A stretch of DNA of 64,000 bases, taken from positions 496,001 through 560,000 of the forward strand of contig NZ_OY762512.1 in the NCBI RefSeq assembly GCF_963665995.1. Direction: 5' to 3'. Shown here in pieces: positions 9,702 through 63,900 of the stretch. The notes under the pieces were generated by a model. That model had not been told where the DNA came from, searched no databases, and saw only the letters and a list, made by a program, of their open reading frames with translations. Every line of letters begins with the position of its first letter. The stretch's first letter is position 1. This stretch comes from Pleurocapsa sp. FMAR1. Lineage in GTDB: Bacteria > Cyanobacteriota > Cyanobacteriia > Cyanobacteriales > Xenococcaceae. The translations under genes were made by a program, and so were the position numbers.

Positions 9702-10163
9702 TTACGCATATACGTTAGGACATTTTTTGAAAGCTGTATCAACACATTCTCTAACAGTCTCAAATTCTTTAACTCTCTGCTTCATCCAAGTTTTGAGAAC
9801 CGACCACCAACGCTCTATCTTGTTTAGATCGGCAGAATAAGAGGGCAAATACCAAATCTGGCACCCTGCTTCTTCTACTATTTCTTGAATACTTTGTCCT
9901 TTATGAAAAGTAGCATTATCAATAATAATGATATTTCCAGGTTGAAGTTGAGGAATCAAACTTTCTTTAAGCCATGTCTCAAATAAATCTCGATTACATG
10001 ACCCTTCAAAAGTTAACGGAGCAAACACTTTTCCTTCTTTGAATGCAGCAATCCAACTTACTCTCTCATTTCTTTTACCAGATTTGAGTGCGTAACATCT
10101 TTCTCCTTTGGGGCTATAACCATAGGGATAATCGTCTCGGTTATCGAATCCTGCTTCATCCAC
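9702..10163 (-). pseudogene. IS630 transposase, DDE part
   Basis: This is the catalytic half of the transposase: VDEAGFD gives the first Asp, IIIIDNATFHKG the second, and YSADLNKIERWW the final acidic residue. In the same frame the coding sense continues upstream of 10163 (QTYGYQETDEEKRKEFQEQ) to the edge of the palindromic insertion, so the two halves were one gene of roughly 320 codons before the insertion shifted the frame. Confidence 0.85.
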
Positions 10164-10224
10164 ACAAACTAGGTTATTTGCCTGTTGATGTTTTAGTTGC
10201 TCTTGAAATTCTTTTCTTTTCTCT

Positions 10225-10653
10225 TCATCTGTTTCTTGATACCCGTAAGTTTGTCTTGGTCAGCGTACATGCGGGCAAGCCCTTTGTCTTGCGCCTGTCG
10301 GCGACGCGGGGTCTGACCGCTTTTTTTCTGGTTATGCCTAACTTTTTAATTCCATCACTAATATTTTGCTGGGTAAGATTCTCTCCCCACAAATCTGCCA
10401 TTTGCTGTTGTGTCTTATCTTTATGTTGTTTAACAAACTGTTTGAATCTCTCTAAATCCTGAATTTTTCGCTCTTCTCTGGTAAGACGCTCGGCGACCGC
10501 TTTAAAGTCTCCTGTTTCTTGTTCTCTTTTCAGCCATAGGTCTAAGGTGTTACGGCTTATTTTCATCAATCGACAAATAGTTCTCTTCTTTTCACCTCTA
10601 GAACAGGCATCTACGGCTTTTTTTCTTAAATCGTAGCTATAGGGAGCAGGCAT
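10225..10653 (-). pseudogene. IS630 transposase, helix-turn-helix part
   Basis: MPAPYSYDLRKKAVDAC begins the DNA-binding half, with RTICRLMKISRNTLDLW as helix-turn-helix. After GITRKK the frame runs into the inserted palindrome, which adds about 21 foreign residues, then goes out of frame and stops. Unless a frameshift is used, no full transposase can be made. Confidence 0.85.
10258..10318 (+). repeat. Core-1 hairpin repeat inside the IS630 transposase
   Basis: Arms GGTCAG and CTGACC enclose a core that ends CGGCGACGCGGGGT, preceded by TTGCGCC and a CATGCGGGCAAGCCC module. The same core, with other arms, occurs at 36587-36630, 37692-37734 and 63326-63368. The identical insert is present in the second IS630 copy (50130-50190). 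Confidence 0.85.
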
Positions 10654-14505: not shown

Positions 14506-15127
14506 CAGGGCTTCGCCCTACACGATGCGAAGCATCGAAGTCGTCCGAAGGACGGACGATCTGGGCGATAGCCCTGTGGCGCGAAGTGTGAGGTGAACGC
14601 TCTCTGCGTTCCGACGTCTCCTTGGGAACGGCGACGGACAGAGAGTCCGTGTATGAAGTAAAACAGCTGCATGAAGTATGAAGTATGAGGTATGAAGTAT
14701 GAAGTAAAACAGCTACTTCTTCCTTCGTATGAGGTACAAAAAATCTTTCTTCCTTCTTCCTTCAAACTTCTTCCTTCAAACTTCGTAAACAGCTACTTCC
14801 TCCTACATGCGGACAAGTCCTTTGTTCCACTATAGTTGCAAGCCCCGTCGTTCACGACGAAAGAGGTTTGGTAGAGGTACCAGGGCTTCGCCCTACACGA
14901 TGCGAAGCATCGAAGTCGTCCGAAGGACGGACGATCTGGGCGATAGCCCTGTGTATGAGGTATGAAGGCGCGAAGTATGAGGTGTGAGGTATGAGCTACA
15001 AAAAATCCTTCCCGAATTCCGAATTCCTTCAAACTTCGCGCCTTCAAACTTCTTCCTTCGTATGAGGTACAAGCCCTCGAACAAACTTGAAACTTCGCGC
15101 CTTCATACTTCTGTCTTCAAACTTCTG
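14506..15127 (+). repeat. 622-bp composite palindromic element, copy A
   Basis: It is flanked by TTGAC on both sides (14501-14505 and 15128-15132). It starts CAGGGCTTCGCCCT, a hairpin, and holds two copies of a 71-bp multi-hairpin unit (14506-14576 and 14881-14951), a CTCTCTG/CAGAGAG hairpin (14600-14645), runs of TATGAAG-type and CTTCAAA-type heptamers and an ACATGCGGACAAGTCC module. No protein is credible. Copy B at 15688-16309 has the same length and differs at only a few places. Confidence 0.9.
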
Positions 15128-15687: not shown

Positions 15688-16309
15688 CAGGGCTTCGCCC
15701 TACACGATGCGAAGCATCGAAGTCGTCCGAAGGACGGACGATCTGGGCGATAGCCCTGTGGCGCGAAGTGTGAGGTGAACGCTCTCTGCGTTCCGACGTC
15801 TCCTTGGGAACGGCGACGGACAGAGAGTCCGTGTATGAAGTAAAACAGCTGCATGAAGTATGAAGTATGAGGTATGAAGTATGAAGTAAAACAGCTACTT
15901 CTTCCTTCGTATGAGGTACAAAAAATCTTTCTTCCTTCTTCCTTCAAACTTCTTCCTTCAAACTTCGTAAACAGCTACTTCCTCCTACATGCGGACAAGT
16001 CCTTTGTTCCACTATAGTTGCAAGCCCCGTCGTTCACGATCGCTCTTAGTTTGGTAGAGGTACCAGGGCTTCGCCCTACACGATGCGAAGCATCGAAGTC
16101 GTCCGAAGGACGGACGATCTGGGCGATAGCCCTGTGTATGAGGTATGAAGGCGCGAAGTATGAGGTGTGAGGTATGAGCTACAAAAAATCCTTCCCGAAT
16201 TCCGAATTCCTTCAAACTTCAAACTTCAAACTTCTTCCTTCGTATGAGGTACAAGCCCTCGAACAAACTTGAAACTTCGCGCCTTCATACTTCTGTCTTC
16301 AAACTTCTA
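15688..16309 (+). repeat. 622-bp composite palindromic element, copy B
   Basis: It is nearly identical to copy A and also flanked by TTGAC (15683-15687 and 16310-16314). The 71-bp units are at 15688-15758 and 16064-16134. Visible differences from copy A are a short replacement near 16038-16050 (with GCGATCGTGAACG on the reverse strand) and loss of a GCGCC inside the CTTCAAA run; the two length changes cancel. Confidence 0.9.
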
Positions 16310-36229: not shown

Positions 36230-36700
36230 ATGGAGCCTCGCCCTCGACAGTTCCTTCAACGGGGGGAACCCCCGCAATGGCTACATGCGGAAGTGCGCCT
36301 TTGTTGAAGCGATGGCTGCACAACGCGAAGCGTTGAGTACAGCGCATCCGCGCCATCGTCTGCGGAGCACAAAGGGCTTGCCAGACATGCGGGCAAACCC
36401 CCACCGCGAGAGTGGAATAGCGCTTGGGTCTGTTGCGGACGGCTGTTTTGGGGACAGAATACTCTGACCCAACCTCGACAGTTCCTTTAAGCGGGGTTTC
36501 CCCGCCAACGGACTGTCTCGCAAAACACGCCTTGGCTTCCCCCCGTTGAAGAACTGAACCAAGACAGCCCTTTAACTCAGGGCATCGAGAAGCATTCCCT
36601 TGCGCAGTAGCGGCGACGCGGGGTCTTCTCTCATTTCCGTGCAGCAAAGACCGCCTCGCTTCGCTTTTCACGCTGTTAGCTGTTAGCTGTTAGCTTTCAG
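36230..36700. repeat. Palindrome cluster between fabI and hisB
   Basis: About 470 bases of GC-rich hairpin units fill the gap. They include CTTCAAC/GTTGAAG arms around a GGGGGGAACCCCC core (36248-36308), GACAGT/ACTGTC (36477-36517) and the core-1 hairpin GAGAAG/CTTCTC (36587-36630), ending in three GCTGTTA heptamers. Open frames here run only because the repeats lack stops; I see no real gene. Confidence 0.85.
36587..36630 (+). repeat. Core-1 hairpin, arms GAGAAG/CTTCTC
   Basis: A 32-nt core beginning CATTCCCTTGCG and ending CGGCGACGCGGGGT is enclosed by six perfectly paired bases. The same core with GGTGCG/CGCACC arms lies inside cobN, with GGAAAG/CTTTCC arms after hisB, and in an extended form with GGTCAG/CTGACC arms inside IS630. 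Confidence 0.85.
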
Positions 36701-36747
36701 CCTTATTAGGTTCATAATTAAAACAGACTGCATATCAAGGAGTAATA

Positions 36748-37389
36748 ATGCAACTTAGCGATCGCGAAACAGCCTTAAAGAATAATCATGATCTAAGCCT
36801 AGGTAGAACAGCATCTATTAGCCGTACTACTGGAGAAACAGATGTTCAGGTCGAGTTAAATATCGACGGTACGGGCAAATGTCATGCTGATACTGGCATT
36901 CCCTTTCTCGACCATATGTTAAACCAAATTTCTGCTCATGGTTTAATCGATCTCAACGTCAAAGCCACTGGAGACATCGAAATTGACGATCACCATACCA
37001 ATGAAGACGTAGGTATAACTTTAGGCATGGCTTTAGCTAAAGCTTTAGGCGATCGCCAAGGCATTGTCCGTTTTGGTCATTTTGTTGCTCCCTTAGATGA
37101 AGCTTTAGTGCAGGTGGCACTAGATTTTTCAGGCAGACCGCACCTTAGCTATGGTTTAGAAATTCCTACCCAACGAGTCGGCACTTACGATACTCAGTTG
37201 ATCAGAGAGTTTTTTGTAGCAGTGGTCAATCATTCTCAAATGACCCTCCATATTCGCCAGATAGACGGCATCAATTCGCATCACATTATTGAAGCAACCT
37301 TTAAAGCTTTTGCCCGTGCAGTTCGCATGGCGACAGAACCCGATCCCCGCCGTGGTGGTAAAATTCCTAGTTCCAAGGGAGTTCTTTAG
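36748..37389 (+). CDS. hisB: Imidazoleglycerol-phosphate dehydratase
   Basis: This is the histidine biosynthesis enzyme that dehydrates IGP to imidazole-acetol phosphate. The 213 residues contain the metal-binding signatures [17 protein letters not shown] and [11 protein letters not shown], and the second pair [14 protein letters not shown] near the C-terminus. It is the stand-alone form, without a phosphatase domain. AAGGAG lies 7 bases before the ATG. It is boxed in by palindrome clusters on both sides and is not in a his operon. Confidence 0.97.
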
Positions 37390-37490
37390 CATTGAACATT
37401 GCGAGACACCCTCGACAGTACGTGCGTACAAGTACGTGCGGACAAGTCCTTCGTTCGTCTGCGGAGGGAAAGCCAAGGCGCGTTTTGCAA

Positions 37491-37532
37491 GACAGTTGCG
37501 TTGCGGGTCTGCGACCCATTGAGCAAACTGTC
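37491..37532 (+). repeat. Core-2 hairpin, arms GACAGTT/AACTGTC
   Basis: A 28-nt core starting GCGTTGCGGG and ending CCCATTGAGCA is bounded by 7 perfectly paired bases. It has the same length and ends as the core at 37629-37656 but different arms and a different inner stem (GGGTC/GACCC). Confidence 0.8.
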
Positions 37533-37622
37533 GAGGTTGAGTGGGAAGCTTCCCACTCAAAAGCCGCCGTTCCTGCAAGGCTGTCTCGCAAAACCGTTGC
37601 GGTGAAGCAGTTGCGGTGGTGA

Positions 37623-37662
37623 AGCATTGCGGTCTTGGGGGTTTCCCCCATGAGCAAATGCT
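37623..37662 (+). repeat. Core-2 hairpin, arms AGCATT/AATGCT
   Basis: A 28-nt core (GCGGTCTTGGGGG then TTTCCCCCATGAGCA) is bounded by 6 paired bases. Its reverse complement is identical at all 28 positions to the core at 47712-47739, which has GAAAGT/ACTTTC arms. Confidence 0.85.
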
Positions 37663-37691
37663 GAAAGGGTTCCCCGACTTGAGCAAACTGA

Positions 37692-37734
37692 GGAAAGACC
37701 CCGCGTCGGCGTAAGACGCAAGGGAATGCTTTCC
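37692..37734 (-). repeat. Core-1 hairpin, arms GGAAAG/CTTTCC
   Basis: On the minus strand the core begins CATTCCCTTGCG and ends CGACGCGGGGT, 31 nt, with six paired arm bases. The inner stem also differs from the other copies yet still pairs (GGCGT/ACGCC). Confidence 0.85.
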
Positions 37735-38097
37735 GATGTCGAACCCGAAGGGGGGTTTCCCCCGTTGAGCGGAGGAAACGCTCCCGTTTAGGGAGCTTGT
37801 TCCACTCCGCTGTTGAGGTACCTGCGACCAAGGGGTACCCCCCGCAGGTAGTACCCCTTGGTTGTCGAGGGCGAGCAAACTGTCGAGGGCGAACATTGTA
37901 GGGTGGGCAAAAAATAGTTTTACATTTTATCTATTATTAAGCTTTTATTGCCCACCAAATAGCAATCAGAATATTAGTAGGGTGGGGAAATTAAATTGTG
38001 TATTTACATCAAAAGTATTTTCCCTGCCCACCAAGAATAGGCAGTGAATAAGTAAGCAGTTAGGAGCGAACGGTTGTTCGCCCGTATAGTAATCAAT

Positions 38098-49794: not shown

Positions 49795-50746
49795 ATGCCT
49801 GCTCCCTATAGCTACGATTTAAGAAAAAAAGCCGTAGATGCCTGTTCTAGAGGTGAAAAGAAGAGAACTATTTGTCGATTGATGAAAATAAGCCGTAACA
49901 CCTTAGACCTATGGCTGAAAAGAGAACAAGAAACAGGAGACTTTAAAGCGGTCGCCGAGCGTCCCACCAGAGAAGAGCGAAAAATTCAGGATTTAGAGAG
50001 ATTCAAACAGTTTGTTAAACAACATAAAGATAAGACACAACAGCAAATGGCAGATTTGTGGGGAGAGAATCTTACCCAGCAAAATATTAGTGATGGAATT
50101 AAAAAGTTAGGCATAACCAGAAAAAAAGCGGTCAGACCCCGCGTCGCCGACAGGCGCAAGACAAAGGGCTTGCCCGCATGTACGCTGACCAAGACAAACT
50201 TACGGGTATCAAGAAACAGATGAAGAGAAAAGAAAAGAATTTCAAGAGCAACTAAAACATCAACAGGCAAATAACCTAGTTTATGTGGATGAAGCAGGAT
50301 TCGATAACCGAGACGATTATCCCTATGGTTATAGCCCCAAAGGAGAAAGATGTTAGGCACTCAAATCTGGTAAAAGAAATGAGAGAGTAAGTTGGATTGC
50401 TGCATTCAAAGAAGGAAAAGTGTTTGCTCCGTTAACTTTTGAAGGGTCATGTAATCGAGATTTATTTGAGACATGGCTTAAAGAAAGTTTGATTCCTCAA
50501 CTTCAACCTGGAAATATCATTATTATTGATAATGCTACTTTTCATAAAGGACAAAGTATTCAAGAAATAGTAGAAGAAGCAGGGTGCCAGATTTGGTATT
50601 TGCCCTCTTATTCTGCCGATCTAAACAAGATAGAGCGTTGGTGGTCGGTTCTCAAAACTTGGATGAAGCAGAGAGTTAAAGAATTTGAGACTGTTAGAGA
50701 ATGTGTTGATACAGCTTTCAAAAAATGTCCTAACGTATATGCGTAA
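49795..50746 (+). pseudogene. IS630 transposase, copy 2 (insert, frameshift and stop)
   Basis: The helix-turn-helix part runs 49795-50223 and the DDE part to 50746. Between them the 63-64 nt hairpin insert shifts the frame, and a TAG at 50355-50357 interrupts the catalytic half. At least this copy cannot supply transposase. Confidence 0.85.
50130..50190 (-). repeat. Core-1 hairpin inside IS630 copy 2
   Basis: It has the same sequence and position as 10258-10318 (arms GGTCAG/CTGACC), showing that the insert predates the spread of this IS630 lineage or was copied with it. Confidence 0.85.
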
Positions 50747-60946: not shown

Positions 60947-63900
60947 ATGCACAAATTAGCAGCACTTCCTGGAGGTTGGAATCCCAATACGGAGGGTGTA
61001 ATTTTTATTGAACAATCTCCTGCACCAATTGTTTTTTTGACTTATGCTGATACCGATATTCAAACTATCGCTGCTGCTCAAGATTCCTTAGACAATGATT
61101 TCCCTAATATCAGAGTGGTTAATTTGTTGAATTTACAACAACAATTAAGCATTGACGTTTATGTAGAAACAGTATTGTCAAAAGCACAGGTAGTTGTCTT
61201 ACGTTTATTAGGTGGAAGTGCCTACTGGTCTTATGGATTAGAGAGAATTAAAGAAACCGTTGAGTTGAGCAATGCTGCTTTATTTGTCTTACCAGGAGAC
61301 AACGCTCCAGATCTTGATTTAATTAGTCATTCGACAGTTTCTTTGGCTGTAGTCAATCAATTGTGGCGTTATTTAATTGAAGGAGGAAAAGAAAATTTTG
61401 TCAATGCTTTGCGGTTTGTTAGTGATACTTGTTTACAAACAAATTATATACCAGCAGCACCAAAGTCTGTTCCCGAAATCGGAATTTATCAATGGCAAAA
61501 CCAAATAGATAAAAATAGTTTAGAAAACTTAAATATTGAGGCAGAAAATGTTAAGAGCGATAAGCTAGACGGACAGGGCGTTAGCCCAGATCGTCGTCTT
61601 ACGACGACTGGCGATGCTTCCGCATCGCGTGCTTCGTTACGCTCTTGTGCGGTTCTTTTTTATCGTTCTCATTATTTAGCAGGTAACACCACGGCAATTG
61701 ATTGTTTATGTCAATCTATAGTATCTCGAAATTTACACCCCATACCTATATTCATCTCTTCATTAAGAAATGTAGAATTACAGCAACAATTGTTAGCTTT
61801 GCTGCAAGAAAATCCGATTAAACTATTATTGAACACTACTAGTTTTTCTTTGGCAAAAATTGGCGAGTCTGCTCAACTACAGTTTTGGCAACAGTTAAAT
61901 GTTCCTGTTTTACAGGTGATACTAAGTAGCAGTACTCTTGAGCAATGGGAATCTAGCTTACAAGGCTTAATGCCCAGGGATGTAGCCATGAACGTAGCAC
62001 TACCAGAAGTAGATGGTAGAATTATCACCCGCGCTATTTCTTTTAAATCGGTACAAACCTGGAACAAAAAGCTAGAAACTAACGTGGTTGTTTATCAGCC
62101 AAAAAGCGATCGCACGGATTTTGTCGCCGACTCAGCAGCTAACTGGGTTAATCTCGCTAATACAATACCTAAAGACAGGAAAGTAGCTTTAATTCTTGCT
62201 AACTATCCTAACAAAGACGGCAGAATTGCTAACGGCGTGGGTTTAGATACTCCCGCAAGCTGTATTAAAATTCTTGAAGCTTTACAACAATCAGGATATA
62301 CAGTTACAAATATGCCCAAGACGGGAGAGGAATTAATTCAACGTCTGACTACAGGTATTACCAACGATCCTGAAAGTCGCGCCTCTCGCCCAACATATCA
62401 AAGTTTATCGATAGAAGATTATCAAAAGTATTGGCAGACATTACCTGAAGCGGTACAGCAAAGTATAACAAATAGATGGGGCGTTTCTGTTGAACATCCT
62501 CATGAAATTGCCAAGCAGGATGGGGAGATGGGGAGATGGGGAGATAGGGAGATACAAATTCCTGGAATACAGTTGGGGAATGTGTTTGTAGGGATACAAC
62601 CATCGCGGGGATACGATCGCGATCCTAGTTTAAATTACCATGCACCAGATCTAGAACCTACTCACGAGTATTTAGCTTATTATCATTGGCTAAGAAGTTG
62701 CTTTGGGGTACAGGCGATCGTTCATGTCGGCAAACATGGCAACCTAGAATGGCTACCAGGGAAAAGCTTGGCATTATCAGCCAGTTGCTATCCTGAAGTT
62801 GCCTTACAAACTATTCCCAATATCTATCCCTTTATTGTCAACGATCCAGGAGAAGGTTCACAAGCAAAAAGGCGATCGCAAGCCGTAATTATCGATCATC
62901 TTACCCCGCCCCTTACCCGTGCGGAGTTATACGGTGGGTTAGAAAAATTAGAGGCTTTAATCGATGAATACTATGAAGCACAAAGCTTAGATCCGACTCG
63001 CTTAAATATTATTAGCGATCGCATTACTAAACTAGTTCAGCAAGAAAACTTAGACCAAGATTTAGGTATCAAACCCAATGAGACTGAAACTTTAGCGCAA
63101 TTTCTCTCTGTCGCTGATGGCTATCTCTGTGAACTAAAAGAAGCACAGATACGAGATGGTTTACATATCTTTGGGCAATGTCCCCAAGGAGAACAACTAC
63201 GAGATCTAATTATTGCGATCGCTCGTTCACCTAGTTATAACCGTATCGGTTTAACTCAGGCATTGGCAAAAGATTTTGGTTTGGATTTTGATCCTTTATT
63301 AGGCGGAGATGTAGGGGCGTGTCTTGGTGCGCGTTCCCTTGCGCCTAACGGCGACGCGGGGTCGCACCGCTTTCGCGAAACGCCCCTACAGGGTATTGCA
63401 GGTTTGCCAGATAATTATCTAACAGAATTAAAACAAGCTAGAAATAAAGGTGATGCGATCGCCATCCTCGAAGAAATTGCCATCGAATTAGTAGATAACT
63501 TGCTCAACAATACACTTCTTACCTCTTACTGTACGGGCGATTCGCGAATCGCCCCTAACCTATTACCTATTACCTCATTACAGCTTCAGTGGATTAAAAA
63601 CACCCTACTGCCGAATCTAATCAAAAGCGATCGCGAAATAACTAACCTAATCAAAGCTTTAGATGGCAAATATATACCCAGTGGTGCATCGGGCGCACCC
63701 ACTAGAGGTAGACCAGAAGTATTACCCACAGGACGTAACTTTTATTCGGTAGATATTCGCGGGATTCCTACCGAAACCGCCTGGGAAGTAGGCAGTAAAG
63801 CAGCAGAGGTAGTAATTGAACGCTATACCCAAGAAAACGGCGAATATCCCCAATCCTTGGCAATTTCTATCTGGGGAACCTCAACCATGCGGACTGGAGG

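What the first reader, a model, noticed from the sequence alone, without database searches (positions are those of the whole stretch)
36587..37734. Core-1 hairpins: one loop sequence, a different self-pairing stem in every copy
Seen: a 31-32 nt core (C-A/G-TTCCCTTGCG... to CG-CGACGCGGGGT) is enclosed by GAGAAG/CTTCTC (36587-36630), GGAAAG/CTTTCC (37692-37734, inverted) and GGTGCG/CGCACC (63326-63368, in cobN); an extended form has GGTCAG/CTGACC (in both IS630 copies) and a diverged form CTCTCTG/CAGAGAG (14600-14645, 15782-15827). In every case the arms pair perfectly over 6-7 bases although the arm sequences differ, while the core is conserved. Slow compensatory mutation would not normally change every stem pair while sparing the loop. 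Alternatives: insertion that makes an inverted copy of its neighbour bases, insertion into the centre of pre-existing small palindromes, or strong selection on a structured RNA or DNA. I know of small dispersed repeats in cyanobacteria, but not of this rule being described.
Basis: partly seen in the sequence, partly recalled or inferred. Interest (0 to 1): 0.9.

Follow-up and report, generated by a model that had tools for sequence, protein, structure and literature searches.

The report
Tiny mobile hairpins in cyanobacterial genomes
A hairpin of about 50 DNA letters has spread through this cyanobacterium and its relatives, even into working genes; its inner part stays the same while its stem differs between subfamilies yet usually still pairs, which resembles small mobile repeats already known but may be an undescribed family.

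Summary
The core TTCCCTTGCG-N8-CGACGCGGGG (or near it) has 78 places in the 5.43 Mb genome; in 62 of 78 the arms pair over six or more bases. Of 207 distinct copies from several cyanobacteria, 153 pair 6 of 6, with 29 different perfect arms; of 28 further copies kept apart, 23 do. But arms recur in subfamilies, and one (CTCGCG..CGCTCG, 20 of 207) is imperfect.

Orthologous empty sites, heptamer arrays and self-nested copies show that the arms belong to the inserted unit, 51 nt in the main subfamily, usually set between C and T, without target duplication where resolved. So there the arms are neither copied from neighbours nor pre-existing palindromes. The 12 stems of the main subfamily form one network of single base-pair steps. 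Best reading: a non-autonomous small mobile element whose stem must usually pair for it to move. The enzyme is unknown; a REP-type (RAYT) transposase is not supported. Some copies are read through in frame in conserved genes. Closest known: SDR repeats, REPINs, Rickettsia palindromic elements.

The parts
36587..36630 (+). copy 1: arms GAGAAG (36587-36592) and CTTCTC (36625-36630) around a 29-nt core variant; subfamily with CATC..TCA edges
37692..37734 (-). copy 2: arms GGAAAG/CTTTCC, same CATC..TCA subfamily (8 of 207 distinct copies have this arm)
63320..63370 (+). copy 3: complete 51-nt main-subfamily unit TGTCTT-GGTGCG-CG-core-T-CGCACC-GC, in frame (17 codons) in cobN, next base T
63310..63319 (+). 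left half TGTAGGGGCG of a GTAG-type palindrome that copy 3 interrupts
   Evidence: same arrangement in L032
63371..63390 (+). right half TTTCGCGAAACGCCCCTACA of that palindrome
10258..10318 (+). interrupted main-subfamily copy (GGTCAG..CTGACC) in an IS630-like transposase gene; about 20 nt of another small repeat lie inside the core
50130..50190 (-). same interrupted copy in the second IS630-like element
14600..14645 (+). possible distant relative: CTCTCTG..CAGAGAG hairpin of similar predicted shape; kinship unproven
15782..15827 (+). duplicate of the 14600 hairpin inside a repeated block, not an independent case

Best explanation
It is a family of non-autonomous, very small mobile elements. 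The main-subfamily unit is 51 nt: a 5' tail (T-S-TCTT), a 6-bp stem of free sequence, a conserved inner hairpin (CR-TTCCCTTGCG-N8-CGACGCGGGG-T), the second stem arm and a 2-nt 3' tail GC. It inserts cleanly, usually between C and T. SHOWN: arms travel with the unit at the resolved sites; no target duplication there; insertion into heptamer arrays, into its own core and in frame into genes; strong covariation of the arms; stems connected by single-pair steps. INFERRED: an unknown enzyme supplied in trans recognises the folded single strand (RNA or ssDNA) by the inner hairpin and needs mainly pairing, not sequence, in the outer stem. Copies whose arms no longer pair stay in place and decay; copies that pair again seed new subfamilies. 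Hence a conserved loop and diverse but paired stems.
For: 78 places in the genome, none for the reversed control. Arms: 153 of 207 distinct copies 6/6 paired, 29 perfect arms, 31 of 59 distinct arm pairs fully paired against 1.6 by shuffling; a later set of 28 copies not used before gives 23 of 28. Covariation score 0.265 against 0.079 in shuffles and at most 0.062 in slid frames. Unit boundaries: P450 gene, 3 aligned relatives empty (a fourth candidate did not come out in the alignment), 51-nt difference in length; ddl gene, 18 aligned relatives empty, own genome and G318 occupied, net +45 nt in frame; 16 of 72 main-subfamily copies lie between matching heptamers, shuffled mean 1.8, maximum 6; removal of 5 of 72 restores core sequence of another copy, one of them (L112) only in part. 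C on the left in 54, T on the right in 63, both in 49 of 72. Stem network: 12 stems, one component. Copies sharing outer flanks: 31 of 38 pairs have identical arms; at the two sites that look inherited with changed arms (L111 against L151 and L173; L146 against L154) the change is on one side.
Against: No mobilising gene identified. The 20 copies of the CTCGCG/CGCTCG subfamily, from several genomes, have an imperfect stem yet are numerous, so perfect pairing is not strictly needed. Two of the five measures do not exceed shuffles: pairs with a change on both sides (6 against 6.5) and further pair types (17 against 18.1). The ddl site is occupied in two genera with arms differing by one compensated pair (GATGCG/CGCATC, GATGGG/CCCATC); if that were one inherited insertion, pairing would have been kept in place. 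The comparison of inherited sites rests on two events and one C.A mismatch at a site shared by G313 and G318. Near-paired copies have 5 G.T/T.G and 5 A.C/C.A mismatches, so the arms do not tell the structured strand. Folded as DNA the cobN copy is no better than shuffles (z -0.55, -0.89); as RNA moderately better (z -1.98, -2.52). Conservation of the core is partly imposed, since copies were picked by exact core letters.
Confidence: 0.68

Rival explanations
1. The hairpin is a REP/REPIN-like element moved as single-stranded DNA by a RAYT (TnpAREP, a Y1 HUH enzyme).
For: Junctions are mostly C|T, the cleavage site reported for TnpAREP (PMC8266576, passages). Compensatory changes in hairpin arms are reported for REPINs (PMC3116915, passages). 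All 10 family genomes with a RAYT over the NCBIfam cut-off carry the core.
Against: No GTAG or CGTC tag at the edges of the main subfamily. The genome's own RAYT (L290) is flanked by other, GTAG-GGTGGGCA palindromes, and GTAGGGTG-type motifs are present in 7 of 10 RAYT loci fetched, own included. Model R1 finds one match in the 11 loci searched (10 different genes), near the end of L345, over 1 kb from the gene. 8 of 11 family genomes without a RAYT over the cut-off carry the exact core, up to 9 copies. An earlier comparison with a pattern that misses copies gave 6 of 11 and p 0.035; the contrast is 10 of 10 against 8 of 11, one-sided p about 0.12 by hand. Copy number also followed genome size (rho 0.56, p 0.008, on the incomplete counts).
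Confidence: 0.15
2. It moves through an RNA intermediate (reverse transcription at a nick), as proposed for the SDR elements of Nostoc (recalled).
For: The cobN copy folds better than shuffled sequence as RNA on both strands and not as DNA. The inner stem holds two T.G pairs, which suit RNA; their invariance in 58 of 58 aligned copies is imposed by the choice of copies.
Against: No direct test was possible; no transcript data; clean ends without target duplication fit ssDNA transfer as well.
Confidence: 0.3
3. The arms stay paired in place because template switching in the imperfect palindrome (quasipalindrome correction) copies one arm onto the other; pairing has no function.
For: Perfect arms of changed sequence are what such correction would leave; at the ddl site two genera have arms differing by one compensated pair.
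Against: At the two sites that look inherited, changes are one-sided, and a C.A mismatch stands in G318 at a site shared with G313. Few events.
Confidence: 0.15
4. The core inserts into pre-existing palindromes or copies its neighbouring bases.
For: Some copies lie in other palindromic repeats (cobN, L032) or GC-rich inverted repeats (L143).
Against: Empty P450 and ddl sites lack the arms; arms are inside the unit in heptamer arrays and self-nested copies.
Confidence: 0.04

Closest known systems
Small dispersed repeats (SDR1-8) of Nostoc punctiforme (Elhai et al. 2008; recalled, paper not held)
   Same: Very small, mobile, cyanobacterial; precise insertion of SDR5 into HIP1 is cited in PMC4390886 (passage). 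From recall: compensatory stem changes, nesting in themselves, location in heptamer arrays.
   Different: From recall 21-27 nt and confined to one subgroup; here a 51-nt unit with a core found in Xenococcus, Pleurocapsa, Okeania, Hydrocoleum, Spirulina, ESFC-1, Moorena and others. Sequence identity with an SDR could not be tested.
REP / REPIN with RAYT
   Same: Short mobile hairpins, compensatory arm changes (PMC3116915, passages), C|T junctions (PMC8266576, passages).
   Different: No GTAG/CGTC tag, no copy beside a RAYT gene in the loci searched; here the inner hairpin is conserved and the stem free.
Rickettsia palindromic elements (RPE; recalled, search listing only)
   Same: Palindromic DNA read through in frame in protein genes (recalled).
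   Different: Smaller unit, different phylum; sequence relation not tested.
MITEs
   Same: Non-autonomous and short.
   Different: No target duplication at the resolved sites; no transposase with matching ends was found, but none was searched for by its ends.

Membership tests
SDR-type very small mobile repeats | tiny (tens of nt), dispersed, high copy in a cyanobacterium | tested here: met
   78 places in the genome; 51-nt difference at the P450 site
SDR-type very small mobile repeats | shared structure with compensatory stem changes | tested here: met
   that this marks SDR4-6 is recalled
SDR-type very small mobile repeats | sequence of one of the eight described SDR families | not testable with these tools
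   paper not held; a text search for core strings listed 30 of 121 papers, none on cyanobacterial repeats by title
REP/REPIN | GTAG or CGTC tetranucleotide at the hairpin foot | tested here: not met
   aligned main-subfamily edges
REP/REPIN | copies flank a RAYT gene | tested here: not met
   11 loci (10 genes), one distant match; own RAYT has other REPs; not every RAYT of the family was looked at
REP/REPIN | junction at C|T | tested here: met
   49 of 72 copies have C left and T right; P450 site
MITE | target site duplication | tested here: not met
   P450 site, 3 aligned relatives; self-nested copies
RPE-like in-frame palindromes | in-frame read-through inside conserved proteins | tested here: met
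   ddl and P450 with empty relatives; cobN; Pfam matches spanning the insert in a P450, a PKS and a kinase of other genomes
Rfam families | match to a described RNA family | tested here: not met
   window 36300-38000 only; the one match at E up to 1 lies elsewhere in that stretch

The most novel reading that the evidence does not exclude
A family of about 50-nt mobile hairpins in cyanobacteria outside the known SDR range is moved by an enzyme that reads the inner hairpin and checks mainly whether the outer stem pairs, so that stem sequence drifts freely by compensated steps; its unit adds 15-17-residue segments to conserved enzymes. The stem would then be a natural record of transposition and would point to an undescribed mobilisation system.
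Probability: 0.33. Interest if true: 0.75.

Novelty: new variant of a known kind. Interest (0 to 1): 0.55.

Why it matters
It is a very small mobile unit with resolvable ends and orthologous empty sites, and it separates what the machinery seems to read (inner hairpin) from what it seems only to need paired (stem). The mobiliser of the cyanobacterial SDR-type repeats is, as far as I recall, unknown; clean C|T junctions and the free stem make the question testable. In-frame insertion into D-Ala-D-Ala ligase, P450, CobN and TnpB genes parallels Rickettsia palindromic elements (recalled) in a free-living phylum.

Tried and rejected
Arms from the target or from old palindromes: rejected for the main subfamily. 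Six-frame openness as an adaptation to coding DNA: rejected, 4.75 of 6 open frames against 4.62 in shuffles. Phage carriage: no exact core in viral contigs. Rfam: nothing at copies 1 and 2 (other copies not searched). General Y1 transposases as mobiliser: their number does not follow core counts (rho -0.10, on the incomplete counts); two of the 7 own Y1 genes lie within about 1 kb of a core copy, one copy being inside the neighbouring tnpB, which I take as an insertion. Strand from mismatches: 5 against 5, no signal. Three imperfect main-subfamily copies (GGTCAG/CGCACC: L123, L136, L165) follow a TTCCC half-core and are read as nested insertion followed by deletion. The SufD and PabB sites gave no clear single-unit empty site; in cobN the relatives differ too much around the site to fix the ends. 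RAYT association: first seen at p 0.035, lost on a full count.

Data limits: the 207 come from 78 own copies, 86 copies on loci L108-L187 (two of these 164 dropped for short flanks, L137 and L184) and 72 of the 75 non-own rows (3 exact duplicates left out). The pattern needs a non-G at both ends and misses part of the copies. The main subfamily was picked by CTT before the left arm and GC after the right arm, so those letters, and the 51-nt count, follow from the choice; the other edge letters (T 96 percent, T 100 percent, C or G 93 percent) do not. All these sets need exact core letters. Phylum-wide the exact core is in 5 of 386 genomes, model R1 in 9 of 292 with only 21 candidates scored per genome. 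On re-check I lowered the best explanation from 0.72 to 0.68, because inherited one-sided changes came down to two events, and the RAYT rival from 0.2 to 0.15.

Full report
What was checked. TTCCCTTGCG occurs three times in the window against 0.13 expected. The genome holding the window is one contig of 5,429,540 bases; the gapped core pattern has 78 places in it and none for the reversed control. A covariance model from 58 aligned copies finds 130 matches in the genome (150 of 1358 candidates scored) and 5 in the window, two of them the interrupted copies in the IS630-like elements.

The arms. In the 78 own copies the arms pair without a break over 6 bases in 46, 7 in 13 and 8 in 3; the other 16 pair over 1 to 5. 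I merged them with 86 copies on loci L108-L187 of the genome-contig scan (Xenococcus, Pleurocapsa, Okeania, Hydrocoleum, Spirulina, ESFC-1, Moorena, Crocosphaera, Richelia and others) and 72 rows from family members: 207 distinct copies. Of these, 153 have 6 of 6 Watson-Crick pairs, 14 have 5, 25 have 4 and 15 fewer; 29 different perfect arms occur. Of 59 distinct arm pairs 31 pair fully outside the innermost G-C, against a shuffled mean of 1.6 and a maximum of 7 in 2000 shuffles. A check set of 28 further copies has 23 with 6 of 6 and one new arm. On the 58-copy alignment the covariation score is 0.265; shuffles give 0.079, slid partners at most 0.062; two other measures, pairs with a change on both sides and further pair types, do not exceed shuffles. 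The pairing rule is real but not universal: the CTCGCG/CGCTCG subfamily (20 of 207) has two adjacent mismatches, and several copies join a left arm of one subfamily to a right arm of another.

What moves. Picking copies with CTT before the left arm and GC after the right arm gives 71 of 150 deduplicated copies; the other edge letters, T-S-T before CTT, were not part of the choice and are kept in 93 to 100 percent, while sequence outside is unrelated. In a P450 gene of this genome, two of three aligned relatives read AACGC|TA and the third AACGT|TA where the unit stands; the length difference to the nearest is 51 nt, in frame, with no duplication. In the ddl gene 18 aligned relatives are empty while this genome and G318, of another genus, are occupied, with a net gain of 45 nt in frame. 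Own ddl is closer to its genus-mates (up to 93 percent over the query) than to G318 (78 percent), so the two look like separate insertions at one favoured spot. Sixteen of 72 main-subfamily copies lie between matching heptamers (shuffled mean 1.8, maximum 6), and removal of 5 of 72 restores core sequence of another copy, L112 only in part. The left neighbour is C in 54, the right neighbour T in 63, both in 49 of 72. So the arms come with the unit.

How stems change. The 12 perfect stems of the main-subfamily context (91 of 99 copies perfect) form one connected network in which neighbours differ by a single base pair; 7 of 8 stems of the CATC..TC context do likewise. Of 38 pairs of copies with similar outer flanks, 31 have the same arms. 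Of the 7 that differ, three pairs are one-sided changes at sites that look inherited (L111 against L151 and L173, one event; L146 against L154); one swaps part of the left arm (L037 against L102); three (L085 against L108; L158 against L169 and L177) have flanks made of the core itself and are read as separate insertions. I infer that pairing matters when a copy moves and is not kept up afterwards; this rests on two events and one mismatch in G318 at a site shared with G313.

Where it sits. Copies are read through in cobN in the window, in ddl and P450 with empty relatives, in tnpB, and in others; of nine read-through peptides eight match a Pfam family in or beside the insert, the own P450 fragment none. 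Units are not more open in six frames than shuffled sequence, so this is tolerance rather than an evident adaptation. How many copies lie in genes was not counted.

What moves it. C|T is the site reported for TnpAREP (PMC8266576, passages). This genome has 7 Y1 transposase genes, one a RAYT by NCBIfam, but that gene is flanked by GTAG-GGTGGGCA palindromes, GTAGGGTG-type motifs occur in 7 of 10 RAYT loci fetched, and the model finds no copy beside the gene in 11 loci searched. All 10 family genomes with a RAYT over the cut-off carry the core, but so do 8 of 11 without. I do not file the element as a REP. An RNA route remains open: the cobN copy folds better than shuffles as RNA, not as DNA.

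Comparison with the literature. REPIN arms also show compensatory changes (PMC3116915, passages), so the rule itself is not new for small mobile hairpins. The nearest in kind are the SDRs of Nostoc; that paper is not held, so its content here is recalled, except that PMC4390886 cites precise SDR5 insertion into HIP1 (passage). Cyanobacterial GTAG REPs are described in PMC3733652 (passages). Searches of the held library showed no description of this core; one search listed 30 of 121 papers, judged by title.

Verdict. A real SDR-like mobile hairpin family, found in several cyanobacterial genera, with a conserved inner hairpin and a free but usually paired stem.

Noticed in passing
window 9702-10653 (minus) and the copy at 50130-50190: IS630-like transposase gene split into two frames at an interrupted core-1 copy that itself contains about 20 nt of another small repeat (TACATGCGGGCAAGCCC); 17 genome matches share its 30.7-bit model score, so this IS may spread with the insert. 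The 15 outside the window were not read.
   Followed up: partly
window 14600-14645 and 15782-15827: Hairpin CTCTCTG..CAGAGAG of similar predicted shape to core-1 with another core; may be a sister family.
   Followed up: partly
L290 1240-2160: RAYT gene flanked by GTAG-GGTGGGCA..TGCCCACC palindromes, a separate cyanobacterial REP system.
   Followed up: partly
window 63310-63390; L032: GTAG-type palindrome TGTAGGGGCGTTTCGCGAAACGCCCCTACA, itself inside the cobN frame, interrupted by core-1.
   Followed up: partly
L031, L040, L049, L051, L054, L085, L091, L166: Nested copies of the TAGGTCAG..CTGACCTC kind appear to replace 3 nt (G-Y-C) of the core they enter, unlike the clean insertions of the main subfamily.
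   Followed up: partly
L119, L163, L148, L176, L182, L187 and others: Core-1 units between matching heptamers: 14 of 16 at a C|T phase, L121 and L126 at G|T.
   Followed up: yes
ddl gene, own genome and G318 (L052, L293): Same insertion point used in two genera, with arms differing by one compensated pair.
   Followed up: partly
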